Shown piece after piece: positions 3,897 to 52,202 of a stretch of 64,000 bases of DNA (position 1 is its first letter; each line of letters starts with the position of its first letter). A program made the translations under genes and the position numbers. A model generated the notes under the pieces. The model was not told where the DNA came from, made no database searches, and was given only the letters and a program-made list of their open reading frames with translations. The stretch spans positions 208,220,445 to 208,284,444 of the forward strand of contig CM054060.1 of NCBI GenBank assembly GCA_028641055.1, written 5' to 3'. Origin of the DNA: Alopecurus myosuroides. Its lineage: Eukaryota > Streptophyta > Magnoliopsida > Poales > Poaceae.

Positions 3897-3905
3897 CCTT
3901 ATATA
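3897..3905 (-). promoter_or_regulatory. TATA box of the CRM-like LTR
   Basis: TATATAAGG on the minus strand, within an LTR of matching orientation. It is the only good TATA motif in this LTR, about 450 bp from the U3 start, which suits a Pol II retrotransposon promoter. Confidence 0.65.
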
Positions 3906-3960
3906 GCCTAGGGGGTACGTGGGGGTGGAAAAAAGGGGTTTTCAGCCACTTTTGCGAGCT

Positions 3961-4130: not shown

Positions 4131-4357
4131 ACTCCTTCTTCTCCCTCTTCTCTCCTTCTTCCTTGAGAGCTTCTTCTTGGGCATCTTCCATGGCTTCTTG
4201 GGCAACTTCTTGAGCACGTTCTTGGGCATCTTGAGCATCGTATTGGGGGTGCATGGTGGGGTCAAACCTGAGCACACAAAGGGCATTTCCATGAGGTAAC
4301 GCACCATTTACCAAGTCATCGAAAGCATGTATAGAGAGGAGTTAATTCACCTTATCA

Positions 4358-7689: not shown

Positions 7690-7919
7690 AAAAAGTTGGC
7701 CGCCGGCAGGATTCGAACCTGGGTCTCCCTTAGGGGTGTAAGTGGGCACGTCCACTTAGCCCACTTATGTCCACTTAAGTATAATTAGTTCAATTTTGGA
7801 TGAATTGATGTCAAAATTGAACTATTTATATTTAAGTGGACATAAGTGGGCTAAATGGGTTTGTCCACTTACACCCCTAGTCTCACTGGGTGCAGACCGG
7901 GGTCTTAGCCACTGGGATG
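7690..7919 (-). ncRNA. tRNA-like Pol III module in LTR, split by the MITE
   Basis: On the minus strand there is an A-box-like CATCCCAGTGG (7909-7919), a perfect B box GGTTCGAATCC (7709-7719) and a T5 run (7690-7694). With the MITE and one target duplication removed, the distance from TGG to TTCG equals that in the other LTRs and in a class I tRNA gene. A GGTCT/AGACC stem lies in the anticodon-arm region. Transcription is not shown. The MITE now adds about 157 bp between the boxes, which should impair TFIIIC binding. Confidence 0.5.
7731..7879. mobile_element. 149-bp hAT-like MITE
   Basis: The terminal inverted repeats are TAGGGGTGTAAGTGG and CCACTTACACCCCTA. The two halves pair along most of their length, making a foldback. 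It is flanked by an 8-bp duplication with one mismatch (GTCTCCCT at 7723-7730, GTCTCACT at 7880-7887), the size expected for hAT superfamily insertions. The homologous site in the solo LTR (about 11917-11925) lacks it, so it inserted after the two LTRs diverged. It has no coding capacity. Confidence 0.85.
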
Positions 7920-9038
7920 TATACGTGGTTGTGATGAGTTATGTGCGTGTCTGTTAAAGAAGTGAACCTCCGACGTTTAACTGGCGAAAGTGAAACCCAA
8001 ATCTGTAGGTTGCAGATCGGATAACCATGGACGGAAAAACGTGGATGACGACGTACACGAATTGGTGGCGTCCCAATGTCTCTGATGTGCAGGTGGGTAT
8101 GTGCGTGCGTGCCAGCGGGTGGTTGCTGCACCGCGGAAGTGTGTGCCGTACACCTGGAGGCACAAGGGCGTGCAGCAGAAGCGCACGGGCACGAGCGTGT
8201 GCTCGGCCGGGATGGCCAATGGATGCCGACGACGGTGGTGCTACGGTGCATGATAGGAGATGGAGAAAGAGGGGAATAGAACGGTGGTGGTACCCAAAGC
8301 TGCTGGCGAAGCGGGGAGGATGGAGAAGGTCGACGGTGACGGAGATCGTGTCAGGGAGGCGGATACAGTCACGGTGGCCGCCAGGAAGAAGCTCTTGGCG
8401 TGGCAGCATCCATGAGTCCCAGGTCCGGCTCCGGCCTCCCAGAGCGTGTGGAAGATGACGTTGTTCTCCTGGCGCGCTCGTGGCTCTTGTGGTGGTACAA
8501 ATCAACCGAACCGCGAAGCTCCGTTGTCTCCGTCCATGGTGCCGGTATCTCTCGGGTCGAAGGAAGAAAGAAGAGAGAGAGGAGGGTGGCGGCGGCTGGG
8601 AGGGAAGATAAAGAGATACTAGGGTTTGGGGCGAGCCTGGGAGCTGCTTTATGGAGGGGAAGAAGCAGGTGGGGATCGGTACGGTGGTGGTGGCGGAAAG
8701 CATGGTCACGCACGCTGCGTGACTCTCCCTGGAGAAGGCGACAAGAGGAGCATGCCTCCTTCGAGCGCAAGGAGATGTGCCGCATGTGGTGGGCTGGGTT
8801 AGATGGGCCGCTATCTCTCTCTTCTCTCAAAACAATTTTTTTGTTCTTTTGTTTATTCAATTTTTTCAGAAGAAAAAAAAGAGAACTGGTTTAGGGATTT
8901 AGAAAAACAGATTTTTAACCATTTGAAATATTGTAGAAAATAATTTTATTCTATTCCATGTGATATGATGCATGAAGTATGATGATGCACAAAATAAAAA
9001 CAAACAAAACCAATTGGGGAAAATCCCCGGTTGTTACA

Positions 9039-9527: not shown

Positions 9528-12500
9528 TGTGACGCCCCTAGATCGGGTACTATGAGGATTTCAACGTTCCCGCCATAATCCGCATAATACCGATCCCGGG
9601 TTGTCAAATTTTGGTAATGATTACAAGAGTTCACGAATAATCCACAACAACAACAGAAGAGATATATACAACACGACTCTAACGAGTCAAGAATACAACT
9701 TATACAATACAAAGATCCAAATAACAGCGGAAAACAAAATAGTATCCGACTACGAACAAGATACAAATTGGATTAAGAATCCTAAAGATAACAGATGGCG
9801 TCCAATCCCTGCCCAGGCCAGGCCGGAGGGATTCCCAAGCTAACGTCGTCAAACTTCAAACCTGCTGACTGCATTGTGAATACATCCCCGAATCATGGGG
9901 TCAGTACTTTGAAAGTACCAACAAGCGGCAAGCAATACTCACAAGATACCAGTGCAACCAGACATCACAAGATAGAAATACTTTAGGTACAAAGGAGGAA
10001 GTTGTTGTAATGAAGCGGCAGTGGGAAGCACTAAGCAATCTACAGAGACGCGCTACAACTCTCGTCTATTAGAAAGGGATGAGAGAGCGCGACAACCCCA
10101 ACTACAACTACTCACCAGAAACAATACCCATCCAGGATTCACCCCCCTCAACAAGGTGACAGGTAGTAACCCAAGGAAAACTCACACATGTTGATTAAGA
10201 TGATATTTATAATATGGTGAAGGTATATCTATCTTACTATTCAAGTTATCATCATTATGTGTAAGTTGTCTGAGTACTTGCTAGCCAGCACTTTCACCAA
10301 GTGGCCACATAACCACGGACAACACGACTTCTCGAGAAGATTTATCCCTGCATGGTGCGCTACAGTACCCGTACACGTTCGATCAATCCACAACCACAAA
10401 GGAAGGATATCTCAACTCGACCTTTCCTATCACCACTGCACATCCAAGGCACCACGGGAAAATTTGAGCGCACGGTTATTCCAACCCGAAATACGGACCT
10501 TCATAACACTCAAAGAACGTGTCTCCCTAACCGCAACGACTACGTCAGGTCACCGTAGCACCATGGGCTCGTACCTACAAGTTATCGTGCCAAATGGAAA
10601 GCCCGAACTAAGTGTGGCCCCTAGATGAACAGCAGCTCTAGTACTAAATCAAGGGGAGTGCCCATACTCACCACCCACATGCGGTTAGCGCGCTCATCAT
10701 GGATCAGAGGACAAGACCCTTTTCCTTAGTTCGATAGTAGCAGGCTCCAAAACCACGCCGGGCCTCTTGCCGGTGCCTTATCATCAGATTACTATTACCC
10801 AAAACATTAACATGAGGTTGATTAAGTTGAAACCCAACTATCATACTAAACAGGTGACAGAACAAAGAACAACAAGACGTGAGCGCAACTAACACTAAGC
10901 ATGCAACTACGACACGAGGGACAACAAGTAAACAAGCAACAGTTAATAGGTAGTGGAGGGAAGGCTATACCATGGCGGCAAGGTAAACATAAGATAGGAT
11001 TGAGACACAAGCACCGAATCATAAGGCTAGAATAAAGACAATGGAAAATATCGGTAGCAAGTGAGGAACGACAGCCATAGGTAGCAAGTGAGTAAAGCTT
11101 GCCTGAGATTCCAGTTGTAGAGGAAGAAGAACTTGTCGGTGCTCACATCATCTCAACGTCCTATCCGCGATGAAATGAAGCACTTGAAGAAACAACGGAT
11201 GCAACATTTACTACTACGACAAAAGATCCAGCATGACCAAGTTATGGATGCATGACATGCAAGAATGCAACTAAACCAATTAAAGCGGAATCGAAGTCCG
11301 AGCAATTTATTTATGGGTTCAAGTTATTTATCTAACCATCAAGTTAAATGTTGGTTAGCATGGATAACAATTACTAGGTGACCTAACCCAAATTAAATGG
11401 AATAAGGCACGAATTAAATTAAGCACTTAAACATATTCCATGTTTAATTATTTAGGTGGACATGCATAACACTACTTAAAATGCAAGATGAAAGATGCAA
11501 ACATGAGCATGGATGGCATATTAATGGTCCTTGCATTTTTCTGATGAAAATAGACAGAAATTTTGGGTTATTTGGATTTGTAAAACAAAAGATATGAGCA
11601 TATGAAGTTTAGGGTTGTTTCTGAAAAGTGCAGAGATGTGCTAGTGATAAAAATAGAAGAAGGGAGGGCTCTGGTATAAAAACAGAGGACACCAGGGGCC
11701 TGAACAGAAAAAATCCAGATCCGATCTGGATCAGGGGAATGGTCACCGAGATTTCGGCTAGCCCGAGAGGCTGACCTGCGGGCCCTGATGCCACACGGGC
11801 GCTGACAAGGCGGGTGGATTGCCACGATGGCCACCAGAGTCCACGACAGGCGGGGCCGGTTTCACGCGGATAAAATCACAAAAGGGAGGCTTCTGCCTCC
11901 GGAGGGATTCGAACTCGGGTCTCCCGGGACGACGACGAGGGAGAGAGCCACTGGGCCGTGCTGCGTTTTGTGGTACATTACGGATCCGGCCCTAGATTAG
12001 GTGCGCTCCTCGTGGAAAACTGAAACTGAACGAGTTTAGTTTTCTGAACTTTGTTGACGGCAACACAAATGACGATGCCGCTCGAAGGCAGACATCTAGA
12101 GCAAGTAGAGGAGAGGGGGAAGGGGTCTCTGAGGTGCAACTCACCTTGGGGAGCTTGATGGCACAGCGGGACGGCTCGAAGATGATTGAGCAACCGGGAA
12201 GTAGAGGAACCAGAAGACATCGTTGACGACGATGTGCTCGTGGACGGAGGGGAAGACGACCATGGCGGGGACGATCTGGGCGGCCTCGGATCCTGATCTG
12301 CAGAGTAGAGGAAGAGGGCGGCTAGGTGGTTCCATTCCCCACACCGGATGTCCTTCTCGGCGACCACAATCTCGGCTCCGGGAGCTCCCATCTTCGGCCA
12401 TGGAGGTGGAGGTTGATGGAAGGAGAAACAGATGAGGGAGGAGAGGAGGAGAGATGGCGGCGGCTGGGAGAAAGAGAGGAGGGGAGGGGCTAGGGTTCCT

Positions 12501-15576: not shown

Positions 15577-16931
15577 TGTAACATCCCAAGTATGAAAACA
15601 ACCCCTAGAATGTTTGTTTTCTTGTTTTATTTATGTTTTGCATCATGACATCATCATTGCATTTGTTTTGCTTTGTTTTCCATCTGTTTTTCTTTGTTTT
15701 CCATCTGTTTTCCCTTGTTTTCCATTGGAATTTTCAAATCAAATTTCAAATATTTGTTCATACTTGTGCTGTTACAATTTTCAAATAAAAATATTCAAAT
15801 AAAAACAACCATTTGTTTCCATCAAAATAGAAAGCTCAAACTATTAACTTGTTCTTTTTAATAATTCACTTAATTCAAATTTCATTCAAATACAATTAAA
15901 ATTCCAAACAACAACCATTTGAAATTTATGAAAAATACAAAACACTTCCAATCATTTGTTTCAAATAAACTTTAATTTAAAAACTGTTAAGTTGCTTAAG
16001 TTCAATTATTCAATTAATATTAAATTCAATCAAATTCAAACAAAATTGCAAACAGCAACATAGTTTCAAATTTTTGGAAAACAAAAGTTTGTATTATGGT
16101 GCTGTTACAAAATTTAATCAATACAAATTTTTTCCCTAATTTTCTAACCCTAAAAACTAACCTTTTCTTTCCTTTTTCAAATCTGCAAAAAAAAACCAGA
16201 AAGAACAAAAAAAAATAAAACAAAACGCACAGCGAGGGAGGCAGCAGGCCCAGCCCAACTAAACCCACGGCCCGCTACCCCCTCCCCTTTCTCCCTCCTG
16301 TACGGCAGCTCATCCGCCGTGTCCACGTCGCCGTACGGCGGATGGGACGGCCGGGAGGCGCTCCCCTCCTCCTTAAAAACTGCCCCGAGTGCTCCTCCCG
16401 TGCCCTAGACCTCCCTCCTTCCTTCCACCTCGCCGCGCCGCCATTTTTCTTCTCCCTCTGCGCCACCTCCTCTCTCTGAACCTCACCACCCCGAGCGCCA
16501 CCGTCTGAAACCTCGATGATCGCCGCCGTGCTGCCTCTCCTCCCCTCGGGCTAACCACGGGAATCAAGCCCCCTCCGTTCCCTCTACTTCCTCGACACCA
16601 CCGCGGGCACGGAGACCCTCTGCAACGCCGCCGCCATCCTCTTCCCCTCGCCGGCGTCCACCTCCTCCCCGAGCCTCTGCTTCACCTGCAAACGGCGGTG
16701 AGCTCGACCTCTTTTCCTCCCTCTTCCTCTCTGCACGTGCGCACGCACCACCACGCAGCACCACATGCATCCCTGCACTCCCCCACGAGCACAGCAGCAG
16801 CAGCCGCGACGATCGCCGCCGGCGACTGCCTCTGTCAGTTTCAGAAACTGAAACTTGTTCAGTTTCAGTTAGCTGCGCGCTAACTGAACCTCAACCTTCC
16901 CCGTGCACCTTACCTGACAAGAATCGAATCA

Positions 16932-17015
16932 CAGCGCAGTGGCACTGCACTGCGAGCGCGCACACGGGGTCGAGGGTTCGATCCCTGCCTCCCGGGATTA
17001 AATCCCACCTTTTTT
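16932..17015 (+). ncRNA. tRNA-like Pol III module in T1 LTR
   Basis: The A box CAGCGCAGTGG (16932-16942) matches TRGYNNARYGG except the first base. A perfect B box GGTTCGATCC lies at 16975-16984. The spacing from TGG to TTCG is the same as in tRNA-Asp. A short GGGATT/AATCCC hairpin and a T6 run (17010-17015), suitable as a Pol III terminator, follow. Acceptor pairing is poor, so a functional tRNA is unlikely. Transcription is not shown. Confidence 0.55.
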
Positions 17016-27836: not shown

Positions 27837-28393
27837 TGCCCTAGGGCCGCGCGCTGTGCCCTGAGCCCTAGTTCCCCTCTCCCTCGAGCTCCCGCCGCCG
27901 TCTACCCCTCTCGCGGCCACCTCCCACTCTCTGTCCCCCTCTCCGGAGAAGAACACGACTGAATCCATGTCAACCGCCGCCGCTCCCGTTCACCACTCAC
28001 CCACCTAGCCCCTGGAATCGAACGACCACTTCTTCCTCTTCCGATTGCACACCGGAGCCGCCCCGGAGAGCATCTGTAGCCGCGCCGCCGTCCACGACCA
28101 CGTCACCGCCGTCTGCCCCGAGCTGCTGCAACGCCTGCAATCGCCGGTGAGCCTCCACGGTGCCTCCTCCCTCTCTGTTGTTCGCCATCACCACCGCACC
28201 CGTGCACATCATCACTGCATCGTCCAGCACACGTTTCCCCGCGGGCAGCACGAGCACGGCCGCGTTGATCCCCGCCGGCGAGCAGAGTTTCGTTCTCTGA
28301 CAGAGTACAGCGCGCGCACGTTCAAAAATTCAGTTAACGCGTTGTGGAATAATAACCTCACTGCATCGCTGTTCCTATCAAACGACTGAAACT

Positions 28394-28477
28394 CACCGTA
28401 CTGGTTCAGAGCTAGCGATGCGCACGGGCAGGTCGCGGGTTCGAGCCGCGACTCCGTGGAATAAAAACCCACGTTTT
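28394..28477 (+). ncRNA. tRNA-like Pol III module in T2 LTR
   Basis: The A-box-like CACCGTACTGG is at 28394-28404, the B box GGTTCGAGCC at 28438-28447 (one base nearer than in T1) and a T4 run at 28474-28477. The T-arm-like stem TCGCGG/CCGCGA brackets the B box and is fully paired, although its bases differ from the other LTRs. Confidence 0.5.
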
Positions 28478-31510: not shown

Positions 31511-34500
31511 CTAACAGAAAGGGGATAAGATAACGTATCGTAACCAACTACAACTAGCCACCAAACAAACCCATCCTGGACCTCGCCCCTTATCCAAAGA
31601 AGCAATCCGAGGATAACTCACACAGTTGGATTAATGATGGATCAAATTGTTGTGTCAATAAGCCTATTACTAGTCAAGTTATCATTAGTTAGGTGTAAGT
31701 TGTTCTGAGTACTTGTTAGCCAGTACTTTCACCAAGTAATCCATAACCGCGGAAAACACGACTTCTCGAGATGATTTATCCCTGCAGGGGTGCACAAATT
31801 TGGTCGTACACGTAAGAATAACCCGCCAGATGGGAAGGCCTTTCCCACCAAGCGGGGCACTCAACACAACTCAAATCTTCTTCGCATCAAGCCCAAAGCA
31901 CCACGTGCTGTGCGTGCGCGGCTAATCGAGCCCCACGAAGAAAAGGGAACCCTCATAGCACTGGAAGACCACGCCGCCCTAAATGCCGACTACAAAAGTT
32001 CCACCCTGGCCTCGGGTTCGTACCTGCATATGCGTGCATCAAATGGAAAGCCCGAACTAAGTGTGGTGAATTGGACGAGATGCGAATCGAATCAAATTGA
32101 GTGGGGCGCCCATACACGCTTCCCACATGCGGATAGTGCGCTCATCATGGATCAGTAGACAAGACCCTTTTCCTATTAGGGTCGACACTGGCAGGCCTCA
32201 AAACCACGCCGGGCCTCCTGCCGGTGCCTTATCATCAAATTATTATTACCTCAAATAAACAGGTTGTTGTTTAACATCGAGCCCCTCAACATAATAGAAT
32301 ATGATAACAGAAAGTAACTGACGACAGACTCAAGCAAAACAACCCTAAGCATGCTAGTAAAACACAGGCTCAACCAAGGGGTGATGGGAGTGGAGGTGAG
32401 GCAATATCAGGGTTCAGGGTATCATGTGATAGGTTCGTAACAGAAGCAACGATACATAGGTCTAGCAAATATAGACAACGGAAAGTATCGGTAACCAATG
32501 TTGAAAGGAACACAATGTTTCATGTGAGTGATAACTTGCCTGCAAACCCAGCAGCCGGGTACTGAGCTAGATCCTCAGAAGGGGTGTCGTAAGGATCGTC
32601 GGTCTCAACGTCGTCGTCTATCCGAGAAGAAGTAAACAAACAATACAGAAAGATAAACAATCAATATCATGGCATGGTGCACAATCATGGAATGATGCAT
32701 GTCAAGTTAATAGATGCATCAAAGTAAACTAACTGACATGGTAACACAATTTAAATGGGCACATATGCAATTTTGAGTTGCATATGAAAAACCCATGGAT
32801 TTTGGTTAGATTATTTGTTTTCCAACTAATCAACAGGTTCCAGGGGTTTAGTATGATGCATGCATGAGGAAAACAACAAAATAACAACGATAGAACCAAT
32901 TTAAAATGAGGTGTAGCAATTTAGAATTTTATTTATTAAGTTAAAGAATTTTTGGTTCCTTAAGGTGACACACACAAGTAGTTGTTGTTTTCACCAATTT
33001 AAATTGTGCAAAATAAATAACAAATTTCATATTTGAAAAGATCATAAAATTTTGGGTGGATTACATGTTTCAAACATTGAAAAAGGAATTTGGATGAATT
33101 TATTATGACCTAAACAAAATTAAACAAGTTTTAAAATGAATTTAAAACAAGCATGAATTTTATTTGAATTTTATTTGCTCAAAACATAATTTCAAATTCA
33201 CATTTGAGAAGTTTATACTTTGGTGGTTTGAAAACATATTTTGCATGTTCAAAAATAATTTAAATTGAGCAAGTTATGATTTTAGGAATTTTAATTGATT
33301 TAAATAAGATTTAAATTATTTGAGCAATTTAAATTATTCAAACCATGAAACAAAATTTATATTTGAATAGGTGGTTCAAAATGGTATGGAAAACATATTT
33401 TATTTGCATTATTTGGATTAAAGATGAATTAGTTATGGAATTTAGAATATTGCATTTGAATTATTTGAATTCAAATTTGAATTGCATTTTGAAAATTCAA
33501 AACAGGAAACAAATGATACCAATAGATAGGGAATTAAATTTAGACCAGTGCACCTATTTTATTTTCATCATTTGGAGTTATAAAACTAAAGTTATTATCA
33601 AATTACTTACAGGGACCAATCTGCAATTTTATTGGACCTGGATTTAAAAACAGAAACCGTTAAAAACGTTTTATACGCACAGAACCCTACCCCAGTCGCT
33701 GCCAGGGGGCCCTTGGTCACTGCACGCTTACGTGGCTTCAGAGTGGCTGACAGGGGTCCCTCCCTGTCAGCACTGCTGGCAAAAAGTTGGGATTTTTATC
33801 CCGCGAGCCCAAGGCTCGAACTCGCGATCTCTCCCGAGCGTGCAAAGACTGAAACCAGTTGCGCTGCGCTGCGTTCCTTGTCAGTAGTACACGCGCTAAC
33901 TGAAATTACTGACGAACGAAACCTTCTGCTCTTCGTCAGAGAAGAGGTCACCGGCGGCGAACGGTGGTGCCGTGCGTGTGCTGAACGCGATCTGGTGGTG
34001 CAAGACGTGTGCAGATGTGTGCGCGCAGAGGGTGACAGAGAGGAGGAGGAGACGGTGGCGCTCACCACCGTTGTTGTGGTTGCAGCGGCTCGGTGACGAA
34101 TCGACGGCGTCAGCTCCGTGGACGGCGGCGACGGTGGGGCGAGTCTCCGTGGCGGCTGCAGTGTCCAATCGGAGGAGGAGGTGGTGGCGAGTCGATCCCA
34201 GCGATCAGATCGCGACGAGGGGCCCTGCAATGATGACGACGACCACGGGTTCAGGGATGGCGCCACGGTGGCCGGAGATGTCGATGACCGCGGTGTCAAA
34301 ACAGAGGCTTACCGAGGCTGAGAAAGTGTTGACGAGGGAGAGGAGGGAACCGTGGTTCGTTTCCCGTAGCTCGGAAGGACGGTGGCGGGCCATAGCGTAT
34401 GTGGTGGTCGGAGGTTCAGAACGGACGACTCCGGCGAGGTGGTGGCAGAGGGGGAAACGCGGCGAGAGAGAGAAAAAATGTGGCGGCGCCTCGAGGGGAG

Positions 34501-35432: not shown

Positions 35433-36389
35433 CTACTGAGAAATGAAAAGGTCCGGATACTTCTTGCGAAGATCCTCTTTGGTCTCCCACGTTGCCTCTT
35501 TATCGGAATGATGCGACCACTGCACTTTCAAGAACTTGGTGCTCTTGTTGCGAGTCTTACGCTCGGTCTCATCGAGAATACGAACAGGGTGCTCCTCATA
35601 AGAGAGATCATTTTGCAGTTCAATGGAATCATGATCAACTGCACGATCTGGATCTTTGAAACACTTCTTGAGCTGTGACACCTGAAACACATCGTGCACC
35701 TTGGATAGTTTTTCTGGAAGTTCAAGACGATAAGCATTTTCTTCCCGCCTTGAGAGAATGTTGAAAGGACCAATGTATCTTGGTGCAAGCTTTCCTTTCA
35801 CACCGAAACGATGAGTGCCCCTGAGGGGAGTTACACGGAGATATGCCTTGTCACCAGGTGCATAGATCATATCCCTGTGCTTGCTGTCATAGTAGCTTTT
35901 CTGACGAGACTGAGCAATCTTGAGATTGTCACGAATGATACGAACTTTCGCCTCGGCTTCCTTAACAATGTCAGGGCCTAAGAGTGAACGTTCACCAGCT
36001 CCAGACCAATTGATTGGACTCCTGCATCTGCGGCCATAGAGTGCTTCAAATGGTGCCATGCCTAGGCTTGCCTGGTAGCTGTTGTTGTAGGAGAATTCAG
36101 CATGTGGAAGGCAATCCTCCCATTTCATGCCAAAGGAGATACCACATGCTCTGAGCATATCCTCGATAATCTGATTGACTCTTTCGACTTGCCCCTGAGA
36201 CTGAGGGTGATAAGCTGTGCTGAACAGAAGTTTGGTGCCTAATGCTTCTTGAAAGCTTTTCCAGAAATGAGAAGTGAATATGCTTCCACGGTCTGAGCTT
36301 ATTTCCAATGAAACACCATGAAGAGGAACAATCTTTGCTGTGTAGAGTTCTGCTAACTGGCTAGCTGAGATTGTTTCTTTTGACAGCAA
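35433..36389 (-). pseudogene. T3 integrase C-terminal part and chromodomain (after frameshift)
   Basis: The frame holds the rest of the integrase core: Asp33 in [11 protein letters not shown] and Glu69 in [13 protein letters not shown], giving D-35-E, then the tail KSYYDSKHRDMIYAPGDKAYL, VTPLRGTHRFGVKGKLAPRY and VHDVFQVSQLKKCF. It ends with a chromodomain (HPVRILDETERKTRNK, then FLKVQWSHHSDKEATWE, then YPDLF). The chromodomain is the signature of chromoviruses and is typical of the Tekay/Del clade; it would steer integration to marked chromatin. The frame overlaps the upstream one at 36361-36389, and one extra A separates them (36378-36381). The rest is intact. Confidence 0.9.
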
Positions 36390-39300
36390 AGAAGTGAGCT
36401 ACTTTAGTGAGACGATCAATAACAACGAAGATTGCATCGTTGCCCTTCTTGGACTTTGGAAAACCAGTGACGAAGTCCATTTCAATCATGTTCCACTTCC
36501 ACTCAGGAATTTTCAGAGGTTGGAGTAGACCGGCTGTTTTCTGATGGACTGCCTTAACACGTTGACAAACGTCGCATTCAGAAACGTATTGAGCAATTTC
36601 ACGTTTCATGCCAGGCCACCAATACAGAGTCTTGAGATCCTGGTACATCTTTGTACTTCCAGGGTGGATGGAAAGAGGAGTTTCATGAGCCTCCTTGAGA
36701 ATAACATCTTTGAGGCTTTGAACTTGAGGAACTGCAATGCGTCCTTCAAAGAACACAGTTCCTTTGTCATCAATTGAGAAGGACTTGAATTTATCCTTGC
36801 CTTCCTTGATGTGATCAACCATCTTCTTGATTTCAGTATCACGACGTTGTTCAGAACGAATCTTGTCCTCGAGAGTTGGACTGGCTGTCAAGCTAGCAAG
36901 ATAGCCTTGAGGAACAAGACCAAGGTTCAGCTTCTGGAATTCTTCATGAAGTGGAGGTTGGCTTTCCACGATCATGAAATTATTGCAATATGACTTGCGA
37001 CTGAGAGCATCGGCCATAACATTAGCCTTGCCTGGAGTGTAAGAAATGGTGAGATCAAAGTCTTTAATCTTTTCAATCCATCTCCTTTGCCTGAGGTTTA
37101 GATCTGGCTGAGTGAAGATGTATTTCAGACTCTTATGATCGGAAAAGATTTCAGTTTTGTTACCCAACAAGTATTGTCTCCATTTCTTGAGGGCAAACAC
37201 AACTGCTGCAAGTTCAAGATCATGAGTGGGATAGTTTTGCTCATGTGCATTCAACTGACGTGAAGCATAAGCCACAACTTGACGTTCTTGCATAAGAACT
37301 GCACCTAGACCTTGGAGAGATGCATCGCAAAATATCTGGAAAGGTTTGGTAGTATCTGGGCCAACCAGAACTGGTGTAGAAGTGAGTTTAGTCTTCAGGA
37401 GATTGAAACTTTCATCACATTGTGGAGACCAAACGAACTTCTTGTCCTTCTTTGTGAGATCAGTGAGAGGTTTGGCAATCTTGGAAAAGTTTTGAACGAA
37501 ACGACGGCAATAGCTAGCCAAGCCTAGAAAGCTTCTAACTTGTTTTACCGTCTTAGGAGGTTTCCAATCAACAATTGCTTTAACCTTTTCTGGATCAATG
37601 GCTATGCCCTTGGCAGAGATGACATGACCAAGGTAAGCAACTTCTGGAATCCAGAACTCACATTTGGAGAACTTGGCATATAGACGATGCTCGCGAAGTT
37701 TCATGAGAGTGAGACGAAGGTGTTCTCCATGCTCTTCCTCAGATTTTGAGTAGACCAGAATATCATCGAGATATACCACAACGAACTTGTCGAGGTATTC
37801 ATGGAAGACAGAATTCATGAGTCTTGAGAATGTCGCCGGTGCATTGGTGAGACCAAAGGACATGACGGTGTATTCATATAGACCGTACCGAGTGGTGAAA
37901 GCTTTTTTTGGAATATCTTCCTTTCTGATCTTTATTTGACGGTAACCCATCCTCAAGTCCAACTTTGAGAATATTGAGGCTCCAGCAAGTTGATCAAAAA
38001 GATCATCGATACGAGGAATTGGATACTTGTTTTTGATGGTTTTCTCGTTGAGAGGACGATAGTCAACCACGAGTCTCTTTGTTTGATCCTTCTTAGCAAC
38101 AAACAGAGTTGGGCAACCCCAAGCGGAGGAACTAGGTTGAATGTAACCTTTCTCCCTGTACATATCGATTTGCTCCTTTAACAATTTCAGTTCAGGAGGA
38201 GCTATCTTATATGGATGCTTATAGATTGGAGCAGTACCTGGTTCAATCTCGATCACGAACTCAACTGCTCTGTCCGGAGGCATCCCTGGCAACTCTTCTG
38301 GAAAGACGTCAGGGAATTCACAAACCACCGGAACATATTCAAGCAGAGGTAGAGGTTTAGCATCCAGGGTGTACAGCTGAACAGAACTTGATTCATTTGG
38401 AGAATAGACTATCTGGCCGGAAGGGTGGAACAGAGTTATCGACTTCTTAGCACAATCAATCGTAGCTTTATTGGCCTTCAACCAATCCATGCCAAGAATG
38501 ACATCAATGTCAGAATTGCCAAGCAGAATGAGGGAAGCAAGGAATATGTGACCTCCAATTAGAATCTGATTCTCATGACTGATCTTGGAAGTTTGCATAG
38601 TTGCTCCAGGGGAGTTTACTACTAGCAGGGAACCCAAACCAACAAAAGGTAGTTTAACTGCTGTCGCAAAGATCTTTGACACGAAAGAATGCGATGCTCC
38701 GGTATGAAACAACACTTTAGCTGGGTTAGAGTTTATGGGGAATGTACCGAGAACGACGTCAGCAGCTTCCTCAGCTTTGTCGGCCTTGATATGATTCACC
38801 CTCGCGGTCCTCCCGACATGCCTGTTGTTGGAGTTGAAGGCTTTAGCCGGAGGAGCACGCACCATTGCCTGGTTGGTGTTGGGGCGAGGAGGTGGTGGAG
38901 GTAGCTGCCTCTGAGTGCACTTGTCAACATAGTGTCCAGTCTGCTTGCATTTGTAGCAAGTGACGACACGAGGTGCATCTGGCCTTGGCTGCCCCATTGA
39001 GAACCTCTGAGCCTGCATCTGAGCTGGGTTGGGTGGGCGGGAAGCGAAGCCTTGAGAAGCTTGGGCATATGGAGCCCTAGTGACAGCACCATTTGGCACC
39101 CAGATGCGGCGCTTCTGCGGAGGGGTGGTCATGTTGGAGGAGGAACCACCCTCACGCGAGTTCTTGCGGGACTCTTCGAACGCCTTGCGCCCATTCTCCT
39201 CATTGAGCGCGGTGTTCACGAGCTCCTCGAAGTCCTTGCACTTGATGTTGGTGAGAGCGTACTTCAGTTCCGGGTTAAAACCTCGGCGGAACCTTGCCAT

Positions 39301-39825
39301 CTTCTTGATCTCAGTGGACACCTCATCACCATCATAACGAGCGAGGCGATTGAACTCGTTCTGGTAGCCAATGACGTCCAGCTTGCCCTGCTTAAGAGAG
39401 CAGAACTCTTCACGCATCCTTTCCATGAGACCATCTTGGATGTGGTGCTTCAGGAAGGCATCCTTGAAACAACCCCAGGTGATTGGGTATCCAGCTTTCA
39501 TGGTCTGGTAGTTCTCCCACCAAGTGGCTGCCTGACCCTTCAGTAGGTAGGTGGCATACTTGACTTTGTCCTCCTCAGCAACGTGAGCAATGTCCAGAGC
39601 CCTGGCCATCTCCCGGATCCAGTCATCAGCATCCAGAGGCTCACGTGTTGCCATGAAAGCTCTCGGACCCATACTGAGGAACTCCTTGATGCTGACCCGT
39701 GGAGCATTCTGGTTGTTGTGCTGGTTAGCCTGGATCTGGGCCATCTGAGCCACGACCTGAGTCATCTGAGTCAACAGCTCCGTGAGCGGAGGTGGTTCAG
39801 GCGGGTTGCTCCTTGTTGGCGGCAT
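36361..39825 (-). pseudogene. T3 gag-pol polyprotein (gag, protease, RT, RNase H, start of integrase)
   Basis: 1154 residues from [13 protein letters not shown]. In order: gag core ([12 protein letters not shown]), zinc knuckle C290-C303, protease at about residue 374 ([12 protein letters not shown]), RT with YLDD at 685-688, RNase H ([14 protein letters not shown], then [12 protein letters not shown]), H2C2 zinc region ([11 protein letters not shown], then CDVC) and the first integrase Asp at about 1117 ([11 protein letters not shown]). The frame ends after AHFFAVK because of one extra A (36378-36381), where the T2 copy reads [13 protein letters not shown]. The protease catalytic Asp is His. 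The element is otherwise complete and recent. It is a Tekay-like chromovirus by its chromodomain. Confidence 0.92.
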
Positions 39826-41388: not shown

Positions 41389-41565
41389 TTTGTCGCACCC
41401 GGACTTCTAGAGGATACTCACCGTACGAACTGAACAGTATTTTTGATTGCATTACGGGGCTTACCGGCACCCGCATCTCTTACGAGTAGGCCAACACTTA
41501 TGTGTGACAACCAATCTTTACTATTCACCGTCGATGTAAACTATCCCGTAGAAATCAGGACACTA

Positions 41566-41608
41566 CCATTGACGTACTTCATAACATACACACATGGTAC
41601 GTCAACGG
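41566..41608 (-). other. TGACGTAC stem-loop near T3 LTR end
   Basis: In plus coordinates the arms are CCATTGACGTAC (41566-41577) and GTACGTCAACGG (41597-41608), with one mismatch and a 19-bp loop. Confidence 0.7.
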
Positions 41609-41863
41609 CTTTGATCAAGATGATAACATAACATATCTCTAAGACACAAAAGATAGAAACAAGTTGCAACTGGCCCTCACTAGGGCAGAGAATAGCAAAT
41701 ACAATCATCCAGAGGACACATGTCCCAACATAACATCATTACAACTCAGCGGAAGCATTCAAGGGGTCTGAGTACAGACAAATCCAAATAGGCTTAAGAA
41801 GCCGGAACTGAAAAGAAAATGGAGCCCATCCACGATGTCTCGAATCCTGCCCGGGTCCGCTAA

Positions 41864-41928
41864 CTACTCGTCAGCAGCCTCGTCAAACTCCACGTAGTAG
41901 CCGTCACGGGGATCCTCGTAAGCGTAGT
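41864..41928 (-). other. Exon-like acidic segment 2 with stop in T3 LTR
   Basis: Encodes YAYEDPRDGYYVEFDEAADE and TAG on the minus strand after a TTTCCTCAG acceptor, in the same phase as in T1 and T2. Confidence 0.45.
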
Positions 41929-43141
41929 CTGAGGAAACCACAGCCCCAAAGGGGTCAGTACATAAACATACTGGCAAGCAAGACTCACAGTTCACCAAAG
42001 TGTAACCCGTCAACACCAAGCACAGATGCCTTGGGTTCAACGGAAGAAAGGGGATATAAAAGATGCTGCAACTGGCTGCGCTAACCAACTACAGAGATTC
42101 TACCACTTCCGGTCTAACAGAAAGGGATAAGATAACGTATCGTAACCAACTACAACTAGCCACCAAACAAACCCATCCTGGACCTCGCCCCTTATCCAAA
42201 GAAGCAATCCGAGGATAACTCACACAGTTGGATTAATGATGGATCAAATTGTTGTGTCAATAAGCCTATTACTAGTCAAGTTATCATTAGTTAGGTGTAA
42301 GTTGTTCTGAGTACTTGTTAGCCAGTACTTTCACCAAGTAATCCATAACCGCGGAAAACATGACTTCTCGAGAAGATTTATCCCTGCAGGGGTGCACCAA
42401 TTTGGCCGTACACGTAAGAATAACCCGCCATATGGGAAGGCCTTTCCCACCAAGCGGGGCACTCAACACAACTCAACTCTTCTTCGCATCAAGCCCAAAG
42501 CACCACGTGCTGTGCGTGCGCGGCTAATCGAGCCCCACGAAGAAAAGGGGACCCTCATAGCACTGGAAGACCACGCCGCCCTAAATGCCGACTACAAAAG
42601 TTCCACCCTGGCCTCGGGTTCGTACCTGCATATGCGTGCATCAAATGGAAAGCCCGAACTAAGTGTGGTGATTTGGACGAGATGCGAATCGAATCAAATT
42701 GAGGGGGGCGCCCATACACGCTTCCCACATGCGGATAGTGCGCTCATTATGGATCAGTAGACAAGACCCTTTTCCTATTAGGGTCGACACTGGCAGGCCT
42801 CAAAACCACGCCGGGCCTCCTGTCGGTGCCTTATCATCAAATTATTATTACCTCAAATAAACAGGTTGTTGTTTAACATCGAGCCCCAGAACATAATAGA
42901 ATATGATAACAGAAAGTAACTGATGACAGACTCGAGCAAAACAACCCTAAGCATGCTAGTAAAGCACAGGCTCAACCAAGGGGTGATGGGAGTGGAGGTG
43001 AGGCAATATCAGGGTTCAGGGTATCATGTGATAGGTTCGTAACAGAAGCAACGATACATAGGTCTAGCAAATATAGACAACTGAAAGTATCGGTAACCAA
43101 TGTTGAAAGGAACACAATGGTTCATGTGAGTGATAACTTGC

Positions 43142-43219
43142 CTGCAAACCCAGCAGCCGGGTACTGAGCTAGATCCTCAGAAGGGGTGTCATAAGGATCG
43201 TCGGTCTCAACGTCGTCGT
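43142..43219 (-). other. Exon-like acidic segment 1 in T3 5' LTR
   Basis: 78 bp, minus strand, between GGATAG/ and /GCAAG, encoding DDVETDDPYDTPSEDLAQYP and five further residues. The same segment is in the 3' LTR at 32540-32617. Confidence 0.45.
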
Positions 43220-44382
43220 CTATCCGAGAAGAAGCAAACAAACAATACAGAAAGATAAACAATCAATATCATGGCATGGTGCACAATCATGGAATGATGC
43301 ATGTCAAGTTAATAGATGCATCAAAGTAAACTAACTGACATGGTAACACAATTTAAATGGGCACATATGCAATTTTGAGTTGCATATGAAAAACCCATGG
43401 ATTGTGGTTAGATTATTTGTTTTCCAACTAATCAACAGGTTCCAGGGGTTTAGTATGATGCATGCATGAGGAAAACAACAAATAACAATGATAGAACCAA
43501 TTTAAAATGAGGTGTAGCAATTTAGAATTTTATTTATTAAGTTAAAGAATTCTTGGTTCCTTAAGGTGACACACACAAGTAGTTGTTGTTTTCACCAATT
43601 TAAATTGTGCAAAATAAATAACAAATTTCATATTTGAAAAGATCATAAAATTTTGGGTGCATTACATGTTTCAAATATTGAAAAAGGAATTTGGATGAAT
43701 TTATTATGACCTAAACAAAATTAAACAAGTTTTAAAATGAATTTAAAACAAGCATGAATTTTATTTGAATTTTATTTTCTCAAAACATAATTTCAAATTC
43801 ACATTTGAGAAGTTTATACTTTGGTGGTTTGAAAACATATTTTGCATGTTCAAAAATAATTTAAATTGAGCAAGTTATGATTTTAGCAATTTTAATTGAT
43901 TTAAATAAGATTTAAATTATTTGAGCAATTTAAATTATTCAAACCATGAAACAAAATTTATATTTGAATAGGTGGTTCAAAATGGTATGGAAAACATATT
44001 TTATTTGCATTATTTGGTCTAAAGATGAATTAGTTATGGAATTTAGAAAATTGCATTTGAATTATTTGAATTCAAATTTGAATTGCATTTTGAAAATTCA
44101 AAACAAGAAACAAATGATACCAATAGATAGGGAATTAAATTTAGACCAGTGCACCTATTTTATTTTCATCATTTGGAGTTATAAAACTAAAGTTATTATC
44201 AAATTACTTACAGGGACCAATCTGCAATTTTATTGGACCTGGATTTAAAAACAGAAACTGTTAAAAACGTTTTATACGCACAGAACCCTACCCGAGTCGC
44301 TGCCAGGGGGGCCCTTGGTCACTGCGCGCTTACGTGGCTTCAGAGTGGCTGACAGGGGGCCCTCCCTGTCAGCACTGCTGGC

Positions 44383-44468
44383 AAAAAGTTGGGATTTTTA
44401 TCCCGCGAGCCCAAGGCTCGAACTCGCGATCTCTCCCGAGCGCGCAAAGACTGAAACCAGTTGCGCTG
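44383..44468 (-). ncRNA. tRNA-like Pol III module in T3 5' LTR
   Basis: A box CAGCGCAACTGG (44457-44468), B box GAGTTCGAGCC (44415-44425), T5 (44383-44387). Identical in layout to the 3' LTR copy. Confidence 0.5.
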
Positions 44469-46035
44469 CGCTGCGTTCCTTGTCAGTAGTACACGCGCGG
44501 GGAGGATAACGTTACAACGCGCTAACTGAAATTACTGACGAACGAAACCTTCTGCTCTTCGTCAGAGAAGAGGTCACCGGCGGCGAGCGGTGGTGCCGTG
44601 CGTGTGCTGGACGCGATCTGGTGGTGCAAGACGTGTGCAGATGCGTGCGCGCAGAGGGTGACAGAGAGGAGGAGGATACGGTGGCGCTCACCACCGTTGT
44701 TGTGGTTGCAGCGGCTCGGTGACGAATCGACGGCGTCAGCAGCGACAGCTCCGTGGACGGCGGCGACGGTGGGGCGAGTCTCCGTGGCGGCTGCAGTGTC
44801 CAATCGGAGGAGCAGGTGGTGGCGAGTCGATCCCAGCGATCAGATCGCGACGAGGGGCCCTGCAACGATGACGACGACCACGGGTTCAGGGATGGCGCCA
44901 CGGTGGCCGGAGATGTCGATGACCGCGGCGTCAAAACAGAGGCTTACCGAGGCTGAGAAAGTGTTGACGAGGGAGAGGAGGGAACCGTGGTTCGTTTCCC
45001 GTAGCTAGGAAGGACGGTGGCGGGCCATGGCGTATGTGGTGGTCGGAGGTTCAGAACGGACGACTCTGGCGAGGTGGTGGCGGAGGGGGAAACGCGGCGA
45101 GAGAGAGAAAAAATGTGGCGGCGCCTCGAGGAGAGAGAGACCTAGGGTTAGTCTAGGGCTGCGCGCTGTGCCCTAGGGTTCTTATAGGGTGCACGAGCAC
45201 CGGATCGGCCGTCGCTGCGGCACGGCTGCCGCCGTGGCACCGCGCGATGCGCGCCGTACACGATGATGACGACGGAACAGAACAGAAAAAAAAACGAATC
45301 GTTTTTCTGAGTTAAGTATCGGGCTGGGCTGCGCGCGGAAAGAAGACGAGGTGGGCTGGGCGCAGCCCACTCCCTGTTGGCGCCAAAACTTTGTTTTTAA
45401 ATTTGTTCTTTTGTTTTTTTTTTTTGCTGAAAAGGAAATTGGAAGGAAGAGATGATTTTTAGGTTAGTAAAAAATTTGGAAAAATTAGGGGAAGTTCCTT
45501 AGGTCAAAAGCAAACAGATGCTAAGCTTTGTTTTCAGAATTTTTGAAATTTGCTTGCTGTTTGAATTTAAACCAAAATTGAATGAATTTCTTTATTAGGT
45601 GAACATTAATAAAAACACACTTTTAAATAGGGTGACCCCTATGTTAATTATAAACAAAATGAGTTAATTTGTGTTGAAAACATTCATAATTTCAAAGTGG
45701 TTCTGTTTGTTGCATTTGGTTTGAATTTTAAATGTGATTTGGAATTTAATTGTTTGATTAAAACCATCATTTAAATAAGTGATCATTATGGAATAATATG
45801 AAACAAATTGGTTGTTTTTATTTGTGATTTTTATGTCAAATGTTGTAACAGAGCAAGTATGAAACAATCATTTGAATAAGGTTTGAATTTGAATTGTGAA
45901 AACAGGGAAAAACAGATGTAACAATTAAGAAACAAATGCAAACAACATGAAAACAATATGATGACATGATGCAATACTTTAATAAACATGAAACAAACAT
46001 TCTAAGGGGTGATTTTTCATACTTGGGATGTTACA

Positions 46036-50400: not shown

Positions 50401-52202
50401 TATGCATTTTAGAATTATAGGGTGCAAATCTGCCATTTTTAAACCATTAGGGACTTAGAAATAAATATTACAGGGGCTAGAATAACTTGCAAGGGCCTAA
50501 TGGTGATTATCAGGAAGTTTCTGTACCAATCCATTGGGAAAAAAATGTTTGTTTTAATTGTGGGAGGGGGGATTCGATCCCCCCACCTCCTGGTGGCGCA
50601 AGGGAACCTGAACCAGATGGGCTATGCGATGTGTGTTGACAGAGAACGGGCTCGGGGGTGTATGTGTTTCTGTTTTCGGGGTTAACTGAATCTCTAACTG
50701 AACCAGGTACCGCACCTGTTAACTGAACCTGTCGCGGTTTTTGGTTTCTGTAACAGATATCGCAGCGAGCAGCAGGGCGATGATCGCCGGTGGCCTGCTT
50801 GCAGCGAGCGCGGGAGGGCGGCGCCGTGCTTGCGGGCCGTGGCCGGGGCAGGCCGCCGTGCGAGACGCAGAGAGGAGGAGGGAAACTAGGAAGGGGCGAC
50901 TCACCTCGGGAGGAAACGGAGGAGGGGGTCGGTGGTGATGGAGGTCGAGGAAGCGACGATGGCCGGCGACTCGGGCACTCTCCCACCTCCAAGCCTTCAC
51001 CAAACATGACGAGAACGAGGGGATGGTTCCATTCCCCTCGTCGGTTGCTCCTCGAGGTGGCCGGAGATGGAAAAGTGGCGGTGGTCTGACGGCGGTGTGG
51101 TGTTGCAGGGTTCAGACAACGAAAAGAAATAGCAGAGAGGTGATCGGGGGAAGAGGAAGAAGGGATGGCGGATGGGGGAGAAGGGTTAGGGTTAGCTGCG
51201 ATCGGAGGAGGAGGGGGATATATGGAGGGAGTAGTTCCCGTACGGCAAGCCATCGGGAGGGCATGGAGTGATCGGAGGGTTCTCCTGCAGTCGTACAGGT
51301 GACATCAGCCAGAGGAGGAAGAAAACAGAGCGAAAGGGGTAATGGGCCAACTGGAAAAAAAAAACGGGCTGGGCTGGCTTTCTCTCTCTCCCTCTAACAG
51401 CTTTCTTTTTATTCTTTCTGTTTGTTTTATTTTATTTTTTTTGCAGAAAACAATTGGAAGAAAAAGAAGGAATTTTGAGGGAGAAAAATTATGGAAAATT
51501 TTGGGTGGCTTAATTATTATATTAGCAACCATTTGACCACTTTTATTTTTCCATGAATTCAAAAATTGAGTGTTGTTTGGAATTGTTTCAAATGTGGATG
51601 ATTTGAGTATTAAAATTATTATTGAAACCAAAATTTTAAATAGGGTGACCCAAATTGCTTTAATTGGAAAATAACAGGGTAAACAAAATGTTTTGGTTAT
51701 TCTTTTCATACTTTCAATTTTGGTTCTGTTTGAAATGCATTCGGTTTGAATTGGAATATTTGCAAATTAATTGGTTAATGATTGAAAACAACAAGTTTAA
51801 TAGGGTGAGCCCTATTATTAAATGGATAAAACATTAGAATGGTTTGGTAATTTCCATGTCTTGGAATTTGGTGATGTTTGGTGATTGCTTGAATTTGAAA
51901 CCAAATTGGAATTGATTAATGGAAATAAAAGCACCATTTTATTAGTTGATCAACATGGAATAAAATGAGAACAATTTGGTTGTTTTCACTTGTTATTTTT
52001 ATTCCAAAAGTTGTAACAGAACAAGTATGAAAACATTGTTTGAGTAAGGTTTGAATTTGAGTTGTGAAAACAGTGGAAAACAAATGCAACAATTTAGAAA
52101 CAAAAGCAAACCACATGGAAACAATATGATGACATGATGCAATACTTAAATAACAAGAAATCAAACATTCTAAAGGGTAGTTTTCATACTTGGGCTGTTA
52201 CA
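47429..52202 (-). mobile_element. T4 LTR 1 of 3 (4774 bp)
   Basis: It runs from TGTCGCACCCTGAT to TTGGGCTGTTACA. The other two LTRs are at 53100-57873 and 58771-63541. Reading by eye I see about 8 differences from LTR 2 over the length. It contains a stem-loop (47608-47650), an open exon-like segment 2 (47902-47966), the palindrome (48425-48436), the tRNA-like module (50539-50624) and an ATATAT TATA-like site (51218-51223) on the minus strand. The 247-aa Pro/Ser/Arg-rich frame at 50510-51253 is GC-rich LTR leader starting upstream of the TATA and is not supported as a gene. Confidence 0.92.
50539..50624 (-). ncRNA. tRNA-like Pol III module in T4 LTR 1
   Basis: On the minus strand the A box TAGCCCATCTGG (50613-50624) fits TRGYNNARYNGG except one position. 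The B box GGATCGAATCC (50570-50580) lies 44 nt from A-box start to B-box start as in tRNA genes, inside a GGGGG/CCCCC T-arm-like stem. T7 follows (50539-50545). The acceptor stem is not paired. Confidence 0.55.

What the first reader, a model, noticed from the sequence alone, without database searches (positions are those of the whole stretch)
16932..17015. tRNA-like Pol III promoter module embedded in long LTRs of two retrotransposon families
Downstream of the TATA box, every complete long LTR I examined carries on its sense strand an A-box-like motif, a GGTTCGA-type B box and a T4-T8 run. The sites are 16932-17015 (T1), 28394-28477 (T2), 33781-33866 and 44383-44468 (T3), 50539-50624, 56210-56295 and 61881-61967 (T4), 7690-7919 (long-LTR family, MITE removed) and 11880-11958 (solo LTR). 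The TGG-to-TTCG distance equals tRNA spacing in all but T2, which is one base shorter. The sequences themselves differ widely, yet the boxes, their spacing and a following T-run persist. Cassandra elements are known to carry a 5S rRNA-type Pol III promoter in their LTRs. I know of no tRNA-like equivalent in chromovirus LTRs but cannot search for one.
Basis: partly seen in the sequence, partly recalled or inferred. Interest (0 to 1): 0.82.

Follow-up and report, generated by a model that had tools for sequence, protein, structure and literature searches.

The report
Pol III promoter inside retrotransposon LTRs
Large plant retrotransposons carry, inside the long repeats at their ends, what looks like a complete tRNA-gene-type RNA polymerase III promoter that has been kept while the sequence around it changed almost beyond recognition.

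Summary
It lies in an LTR block 46-63% identical between four elements, against 85-94% in the 3' LTR part; across the module the only invariant runs of three or more are CAA, TGG, TCGA and TTT.

Seventy LTRs (two are the window's own) were then taken from the window's genome using anchors over 1 kb away. The complete unit is in 46 of 70 in sense, 0 of 70 antisense, about 0.45 of 70 in shuffles. In 41 clusters the boxes stand out but the tRNA cloverleaf is not kept.

Best reading: a selected type 2 Pol III promoter of tRNA ancestry in chromovirus LTRs, predicted to make a ~95-nt sense RNA. Transcription is untested. Cassandra (5S) and Helenus (tRNA) are the nearest known cases, but those are miniature; here carriers include full-size gag-pol elements. 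New variant of a known kind.

The parts
16918..17015 (+). T1 Pol III-like unit: CAA 16918, A box 16932-16942, B box 16975-16985 (GGTTCGATCCC), T6 17010-17015
28379..28477 (+). T2 unit: CAA 28379, weak A box 28394-28404, B box 28438-28448, T4 28474-28477; spacing 34
33781..33880 (-). T3 first LTR unit: CAA 33880, A box ending 33855, B box from 33822, T5 33785-33781
44383..44482 (-). T3 second LTR unit: CAA 44482, A box ending 44457, B box from 44424, T5 44387-44383
50539..50638 (-). T4 LTR unit a: CAA 50638, A box ending 50613 (TAGCCCATCTGG), B box from 50580 (GGATCGAATCC), T7
56210..56309 (-). T4 LTR unit b, same as a
61881..61981 (-). T4 LTR unit c, same as a with T8
11880..11970 (-). solo-LTR unit: CAA 11970, A box ending 11948 (CGGCCCAGTGG), B box from 11915 (AGTTCGAATCC), T4
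7690..7931 (-). unit of the LL element, split by a MITE: CAA 7931, A box ending 7909, B box from 7719 (GGTTCGAATCC), T5
7731..7879 (-). MITE with TA-flanked inverted ends inside the LL unit (147 bp plus one more TA)
   Evidence: Rfam MIR2863/MIR5565 matches below gathering score
15577..20006 (+). T1 LTR (TGTAAC...GCGACA), followed by a TGGTATCA primer-binding site
41391..46035 (-). T3 LTR (complete copy)
35433..39825 (-). T3 gag, protease, RT, RNaseH and integrase zinc-binding domain (36361-39825) and weak integrase core plus chromodomain (35433-36389), split over two overlapping frames in this copy

Best explanation
The module is a gene-internal (type 2) RNA polymerase III promoter of tRNA ancestry, kept by selection in the long LTRs of a chromovirus lineage. 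SHOWN: a CAA initiation triplet, A box, B box and T-run in fixed order, close to fixed spacing and one orientation, retained across highly diverged LTRs of one genome, while tRNA cloverleaf pairing is not kept. INFERRED: TFIIIC binds the A and B boxes, TFIIIB places Pol III at the CAA, and Pol III makes a ~91-101-nt sense RNA that ends in the T-run. In T2 and T3 this lies about 565 and 718 nt downstream of a TATA word that would start the Pol II genomic RNA, so the LTR would be a dual Pol II/Pol III promoter. SPECULATIVE (about 0.35): the benefit is mainly local, with TFIIIC/Pol III occupancy keeping the LTR promoter region open in heterochromatin, rather than the small RNA itself.
For: Composite unit (A>=7) at 7 of 9 window sites and nowhere else in 64 kb; shuffles mean 0.65, max 3. 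CAA at -8 to -5 in all nine sites; chance per LTR 0.064-0.131; published plant tRNA genes have CAA within 10 bases upstream in about 36-45% (PMC11700998, section 3.2 read). Four-way LTR alignment: block identity 46-63%, 3' part 85-94%; the only invariant runs of 3 or more between columns 1800 and 1910 are CAA, TGG, TCGA and TTT. A box given B: Fisher 5.6e-8 at spacing 33, 1.4e-5 for 31-36, 0.002 for 25-60. Genome: 46 of 70 anchor-picked LTRs carry the unit in sense, 0 of 70 antisense, shuffle means 0.40 of 40 and 0.05 of 30; at strong B boxes A>=7 occurs in 56 of 72 sites against 3 of 102 in ten shuffle rounds. 41 clusters at 80% identity: A>=7 in 35 (null 0.171), 28 different A boxes, 21 different B boxes; of the 35, spacing 33 in 20, 34 in 8, 32 in 3 and 35-38 in 4. 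Anchored on the B box, information content is 1.03 at G18, 0.93 at G46 and 1.25 at C48 against a background of mean 0.136, max 0.70. tRNA stems are not paired above shuffles, so DNA signals rather than an RNA fold are kept.
Against: No transcript, ChIP or small-RNA data. ARAGORN and Rfam call no tRNA (short stretches around T4a and T1). Position 8 of the A box is C rather than T in 26 of 41 representatives, and position 10 is C rather than G in 13 of 23 T-type ones (counted). The upstream 50 bases are not A/T-rich (AT 0.46-0.54), unlike plant tRNA genes in general. T2 has a weak A box. In one search, 9 of 35 A-positive representatives lack CAA at -10..-1 and 6 of 41 have A below 7. Ten of 70 LTRs showed no module that I recognize. 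When the box columns are slid along the block, 16 of 603 placements rank above the observed one. CAA and T-run also occur at 22 and 39 of 102 chance B sites. The LTRs are related and include pairs from one element, so they are not independent trials.
Confidence: 0.76

Rival explanations
1. TFIIIC-only site: the boxes are kept as a docking or boundary element (like extra-TFIIIC sites) without productive Pol III transcription.
For: Boxes are conserved while the RNA fold is not; a boundary element suits an LTR in heterochromatin (inference).
Against: An initiation triplet and a T-run are kept too; a pure docking site needs neither.
Confidence: 0.13
2. An RNA element of the Pol II leader: a tRNA-like or hairpin structure in the genomic RNA (packaging, dimerization through the TCGA loop, or a poly(A) hairpin at the R/U5 border).
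For: T4 folds a strong hairpin over the B box and T1 a related one; T2, T3 and solo do not in the minimum-energy fold. A second hairpin before the T-run is seen in T1, T2, T3 and solo, per-LTR P 0.008-0.063. In T1, T2 and T4 that stretch holds ATTAAA or AATAAA.
Against: Stems not paired above shuffles: acceptor 0.31 vs 0.34, anticodon 0.30 vs 0.38, D 0.51 vs 0.46, T 0.69 vs 0.67; T-stem covariation not significant in six window sequences; second hairpin absent in T4 and weak in LL. It does not explain A-box spacing of 33 or the upstream CAA.
Confidence: 0.06
3. Passive relic: an old tRNA or SINE insertion carried along by descent with no present function.
For: tRNA-like ancestry: G46 and C48 stand out besides the boxes. 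Poly(T)-ended tRNA SINEs exist in grasses (PMC2774510, passages). T4 has an 8-base repeat on both sides (P 0.02).
Against: Flanks have diverged strongly while the four signals persist; 28 A-box and 21 B-box variants stay near the consensus; no significant flanking repeat in the other five of six LTRs.
Confidence: 0.04
4. Chance matches in GC-rich LTR leader DNA.
For: Loose motifs occur by chance: without CAA, at A>=6, the window shuffles give a mean of 12 hits against 14 observed.
Against: (with CAA).
Confidence: 0.01

Closest known systems
Helenus (TRIMp3; Kojima 2024, PMC10886601)
   Same: LTR retrotransposon whose LTR holds a tRNA-derived stretch with A and B boxes; mostly predicted not to encode a functional tRNA.
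   Different: Helenus elements are 311-1263 bp, non-autonomous, LTRs up to 323 bp; the only plant case characterized there is Selaginella. Here LTRs are 3.4-4.8 kb and carriers include gag-pol chromoviruses. The paper's screen kept only TRIMs under 1000 bp, noted that 'not a few LTRs' in Repbase resemble part of a tRNA, and argued that autonomous partners must use a Pol II promoter.
Cassandra
   Same: Pol III promoter inside plant LTRs.
   Different: 5S rRNA-type promoter, 565-860 bp TRIM (both from PMC10886601); here tRNA-type boxes in large LTRs.
Poly(T)-ended tRNA SINEs (pSINE, TS, ZmAU, ZmSINE1/2; PMC2774510, passages)
   Same: A box, B box, T-run; possible source of the module.
   Different: Here the module lies in an LTR, shows no significant flanking repeat in five of six cases, and spreads by LTR retrotransposition.
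Tekay-type plant chromoviruses (Del, Bagy-1, Legolas, Peabody, Retrosat-2; PMC6317226, passages)
   Same: Chromodomain integrase (tested). Initiator-Met-type primer-binding site, long LTRs and an extra ORF before gag fit what I recall of the clade.
   Different: A Pol III unit in their LTRs did not appear in the paper searches listed in the report. The Tekay assignment itself rests on recall, not on a tree.

Membership tests
Type 2 (tRNA-type) Pol III promoter, plant form | A box and B box at tRNA spacing, sense strand | tested here: met
   Spacing 33 in 7 of 9 window sites; 56 of 72 strong B sites have A>=7 against 3 of 102 in shuffles. Not met at normal spacing in LL (43).
Type 2 (tRNA-type) Pol III promoter, plant form | CAA initiation triplet within 10 bases upstream | tested here: met
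   9 of 9 window sites; 26 of 35 A-positive representatives.
Type 2 (tRNA-type) Pol III promoter, plant form | T-run terminator shortly after the B box, none inside | tested here: met
   14-26 nt after the B box; no internal TTTT in 8 of 9 sites, the exception being the MITE-split LL.
Type 2 (tRNA-type) Pol III promoter, plant form | A/T-rich upstream 50 bases | tested here: not met
   AT 0.46-0.54 in six LTRs; a common feature of plant tRNA genes but in my judgement not an essential one.
Type 2 (tRNA-type) Pol III promoter, plant form | Transcription by Pol III | not testable with these tools
   No expression or ChIP data on hand.
tRNA gene | Cloverleaf fold | tested here: not met
   Acceptor 0.31 vs shuffled 0.34, anticodon 0.30 vs 0.38; ARAGORN 0 genes; no Rfam tRNA match.
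Helenus / TRIMp3 | tRNA-derived A and B boxes in the LTR | tested here: met
Helenus / TRIMp3 | Miniature element (about 1 kb or less), no coding capacity | tested here: not met
   LTRs of 3.4-4.8 kb; T3 encodes gag, protease, RT, RNaseH, integrase pieces and a chromodomain, though split over two frames in this copy.
Cassandra | 5S rRNA-type promoter in the LTR | tested here: not met
   No Rfam 5S match in the window; the boxes are tRNA-type.
tRNA-derived SINE | Target-site duplications around the module | tested here: not met
   No significant flanking repeat in five of six; T4 has an 8-mer at P 0.02.
[quoted passage not shown]
   PF00385 E 6.5e-7 in window:35433-36389:-.
Chromovirus | Autonomy of the carrier (intact gag-pol) | tested here: inconclusive
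   T3 pol is split over two frames; T4 and LL have only short internal regions. That intact relatives exist was not examined.
Tekay clade | Placement in an RT/RH/INT tree | not tested
   Named from memory of structure only; no tree built.

The most novel reading that the evidence does not exclude
A whole lineage of large, gag-pol-type chromoviruses runs a dual-polymerase LTR: a Pol II promoter for the genomic RNA and, some 500-700 nt inside the leader, a tRNA-derived Pol III gene kept as a promoter rather than as an RNA. This contradicts the expectation that Pol III promoters are confined to miniature elements, and suggests that elements recruit Pol III/TFIIIC to hold their promoters open.
Probability: 0.6. 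Interest if true: 0.86.

Novelty: new variant of a known kind. Interest (0 to 1): 0.78.

Why it matters
The Pol III promoters in LTRs that I found in print are in miniature elements, and the usual argument is that a full-size element cannot depend on Pol III. The first look of the genome searches listed 981 and 2436 candidate LTR places (only 40 of each were scored), so if the sampled copies are typical, a plant genome is seeded with very many TFIIIC/Pol III sites. That bears on how LTR promoters escape silencing, on small-RNA annotation (Pol III RNAs from LTRs), and on where TRIMs such as Helenus and Cassandra came from. It is directly testable with existing RNA and chromatin assays.

Tried and rejected
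Cloverleaf or tRNA gene: rejected. T-stem covariation as evidence for an RNA element: not significant in six window sequences or in the 20 genome representatives with spacing 33. A second hairpin before the T-run looked promising in T1, T2, T3 and solo (per-LTR P 0.008-0.063) but is absent in T4 and weak in LL. SINE-type duplications: not significant in five of six. Column conservation by itself is moderate: box columns 0.72 against 0.52 (permutation P 0.004), but 16 of 603 slid placements rank higher, so I rely on the joint features and the genome set. LTR ORFs near the module have no Pfam match and are probably open by composition. Relatives outside the genome: none in viral contigs or genome contigs by the patterns used (the tool says that near relatives of the window's genome may be left out). 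A non-chromovirus LTR family as negative control and the T4 anchor set were planned but not obtained.

Rows dropped: for the information profile 52 of 70 LTRs were used. Of the other 18, seven have the module too near the end of the stretch held (L032, L033, L039, L049, L051, L054, L058), one has A and B boxes but no T-run (L085), and ten show no module that I recognize (L059, L060, L061, L078, L081, L091, L093, L094, L101, L104). Some of those ten reach looser limits: A>=6, B>=8 and spacing alone are met somewhere in 64 of 70. At A>=6 the full unit is in 49 of 70 sense and 3 of 70 antisense. One search scored 40 of 981 candidates and one search scored 40 of 2436. The 70 LTRs are all 40 T hits and 30 of the 40 solo hits; they include the window's own T1 and solo LTRs and pairs of LTRs from one element, and are the closest relatives of two window LTRs, not a random sample.

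Full report
WHAT IS THERE. The window is a nest of LTR retrotransposons. T1 and T2 lie on the plus strand, T3 and T4 on the minus strand; a second related family lies at about 4.4-12.9 kb on the minus strand. LTRs start TGTAAC and end GCGACA (T type) or GTCACA; T1, T2, T3b, two T4 LTRs and LL are followed by a TGGTATCA primer-binding site of initiator-Met type (the tRNA name is recalled). T3 encodes gag, protease, RT, RNaseH and the integrase zinc-binding domain in one frame, and a weak integrase core match (E 0.0047) plus a chromodomain (E 6.5e-7) in an overlapping second frame. So it is a chromovirus, but this copy's pol is split, and autonomy of the lineage is inferred. T4 and LL have only short internal regions. 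Tekay placement is recalled, not tested. The 3' parts of the two families' LTRs are about 68-71% identical, so they are one lineage.

THE OBSERVATION. At all nine sites the stated stretch is present in LTR-sense orientation. Last G of the A box to first base of the B box is 33 in T1, T3a, T3b, T4a-c and solo, and 34 in T2. Against dinucleotide shuffles of a ~1.1-kb leader, the module is the best sense site in 6 of 6 LTRs tested (T1, T2, T3a, T3b, T4a, solo); shuffles reach it in 0, 38, 6, 4, 0 and 1 of 1000.

A PREDICTION THAT HELD. Plant tRNA genes often start at a CAA triplet just upstream: about 36-45% have CAA in the ten bases upstream (PMC11700998, section 3.2 read in full, other places as passages). 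If the module is a Pol III unit, a CAA should lie 8-17 bases before the A box. It does at all nine sites, at tRNA positions -8 to -5; the chance of CAA in a ten-base window of the same leaders is 0.064-0.131 per LTR. From CAA to the end of the T-run the unit is 91-101 nt in the eight sites without the MITE, with no internal TTTT. With A>=7/9, B>=8/10, spacing 31-36, CAA and T4 required, the window gives 7 hits, all module sites, against mean 0.65 and maximum 3 in 40 shuffles; at A>=6 it gives 11, of which 8 are modules and 3 are one other site in the three T4 copies, against mean 1.88. Without CAA at A>=6 it gives 14 against a shuffle mean of 12, so A, B and T-run alone at that laxness are no evidence. 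T2 (A 6/9) and LL are the two sites not reached at A>=7.

CONSERVATION AGAINST FLANKS. In an alignment of T1, T2, T3b and T4a LTRs, the block holding the module (columns 800-2150) is 46-63% identical pairwise, while columns 2400-5000 are 85-94%. There are 18 runs of at least three invariant columns in the block; between columns 1800 and 1910 there are exactly four: CAA, TGG, TCGA and TTT. The CAA is the only invariant CAA in the block. Box columns average 0.72 pairwise identity against 0.52 (permutation P 0.004), but 16 of 603 slid placements of the same pattern rank higher, so this test alone is moderate. Given the B box, the A box at spacing 33 has combined P 5.6e-8 over T1, T2, T3b, T4a and solo; 1.4e-5 if spacing 31-36 is allowed; 0.002 for 25-60.

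THE WIDER FAMILY. The window's genome (G000, 3.57 Gb, unnamed) was searched with 401-base anchors in the conserved LTR part more than 1 kb from the module: T1 18300-18700 (40 of 981 candidates scored) and solo 10400-10800 (40 of 2436 scored). I read upstream of the anchor in 70 LTRs: all 40 T hits (one search fetched DNA for 18 of them) and 30 of 40 solo hits; two of the 70 are the window's own T1 and solo LTRs. The complete unit (A>=7, B>=8, spacing 32-35, CAA, T4) is in 27 of 40 and 19 of 30 in sense, in 0 of 70 antisense, and in means of 0.40 of 40 and 0.05 of 30 over 20 shuffle rounds. Choosing on the B box alone (>=9), 56 of 72 sense sites have A>=7, 65 a T-run and 52 a CAA; ten shuffle rounds give 3, 39 and 22 of 102; antisense gives 7, 0 and 2 of 47. 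At A>=6 the unit is in 49 of 70 sense and 3 of 70 antisense. Ten of 70 LTRs show no module that I recognize. The T4 module pattern has 30 places in the genome, 3 of them in the window. Of the other 27, I looked at 22 (25 loci, three fetched twice): all keep a CAA and a T-run, although the bases around the CAA change. They were picked by the A-to-B stretch, so only CAA and T-run count as evidence.

WHAT IS CONSERVED: PROMOTER, NOT tRNA. 52 LTRs with B box and T-run fall into 41 greedy clusters at 80% identity over 250 bp. Anchored on the B box only, information content in the flanks is 0.136 on average with a maximum of 0.70; it is 1.03 and 0.64 at G18 and G19 (not corrected for spacing), 0.93 at G46 and 1.25 at C48. 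Peaks in the B box itself (up to 1.95) and in the T-run (1.09) are partly due to the selection. Positions 46 and 48 are tRNA variable-loop positions (numbering recalled), which points to tRNA ancestry. Among the 41, A>=7 at spacing 30-45 occurs in 35 (null 0.171); of these, spacing is 33 in 20, 34 in 8, 32 in 3 and 35-38 in 4; CAA in 26 of 35; there are 28 different A boxes and 21 different B boxes among the 41. The cloverleaf is not kept: acceptor 0.31 paired against 0.34 shuffled, anticodon 0.30 against 0.38, D 0.51 against 0.46 (P 0.11), T 0.69 against 0.67 (P 0.25), in 20 representatives with A>=7 and spacing 33. In the window sequences T-stem covariation is likewise not significant. ARAGORN and Rfam report no tRNA.

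POSITION IN THE LTR. A TATA word lies 565 nt upstream of the module in T2 and 718 nt in T3b; T1 and T4 have weaker words at the aligned place; none near it was seen in LL or solo. A GGTGAG word at -187 to -281 and a TTCAGTT word at about -38 to -103 occur in T1, T2, T3, T4 and solo, not in LL, and could be a short leader intron just upstream. So the unit would lie inside the Pol II leader, near the border between fast- and slow-evolving LTR parts.

MECHANISM. Shown: order, near-constant spacing, orientation and retention of the four Pol III signals. Inferred from established Pol III biology: TFIIIC on A and B boxes, TFIIIB and Pol III start at the CAA, stop at the T-run, a ~95-nt sense RNA. 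The retention of start and stop signals favours real transcription over a TFIIIC docking site; the lack of kept stems argues against a role for a tRNA-like fold. What the element gains is open; I favour local chromatin opening of the LTR at about 0.35.

COMPARISON. Kojima 2024 (PMC10886601; abstract, Methods, Discussion and part 1 of 2 of the Results read, plus passages) described Helenus, TRIMs of 311-1263 bp with tRNA-like LTRs in fungi, animals and one lycophyte, screened only TRIMs under 1000 bp, mentioned that 'not a few LTRs' in Repbase resemble part of a tRNA, and argued that autonomous partners must use Pol II promoters. Cassandra has a 5S-type promoter (same paper). The present elements fail the size and coding criteria of TRIMp3 but share the promoter idea. 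Maize work (PMC2774510, passages) defines plant SINE boxes as RRYNNRRYGG and GGTTCGANNCC. T1 and solo fit the A box fully (8 of 8), T3 at 7, T2 and T4 at 6; T1 fits the B box fully (9 of 9), T2, T4 and solo at 8, T3 at 7. Nine listings on Pol III, tRNA and LTRs and one on rice gypsy elements, in an open-access library, showed no title or abstract start reporting a tRNA-type Pol III unit in chromovirus or other full-size plant LTRs. Most of those papers were seen as listings only; PMC8664484, PMC6317226 and PMC8825457 as passages. Subscription journals were not searched, so this is weak evidence of novelty.

LIMITS.

Noticed in passing
window:20549-21364 (+) and window:40035-40850 (-): A 271-aa ORF between the LTR and gag in both T1 and T3, no Pfam match; extra ORFs before gag are known in some rice gypsy elements (recalled).
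   Followed up: partly
window:7731-7879: MITE with TA-flanked inverted ends splits the LL unit; it matches Rfam MIR2863/MIR5565 below gathering score and brings in a new A-box-like word exactly 33 nt from the B box, without a CAA.
   Followed up: partly
window:47415-63541: T4 is a tandem of three ~4.77-kb LTRs and two ~0.9-kb internal stretches, copies about 99.6% identical: a recently made tandem of an element with little or no coding sequence.
   Followed up: partly
window:4880-9038: LL element: long LTR, about 475-bp internal region with TGGTATCA primer-binding site, then the start of another LTR at 4903: a non-autonomous long-LTR element.
   Followed up: partly
window:49551-50419 (and T1 17187-17878): Tandem repeats of about 159 bp just downstream of the module in the LTRs.
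   Followed up: no
T1, T2, T3, T4 and solo leaders, -187 to -281 and -38 to -103 from the module: Conserved GGTGAG and TTCAGTT words that look like the ends of a short leader intron.
   Followed up: partly
LTR alignment columns 800-2150 against 2400-5000: Sharp change in divergence inside one LTR: 46-63% against 85-94% identity. Recombination between LTR parts or very fast leader evolution; unexplained.
   Followed up: no
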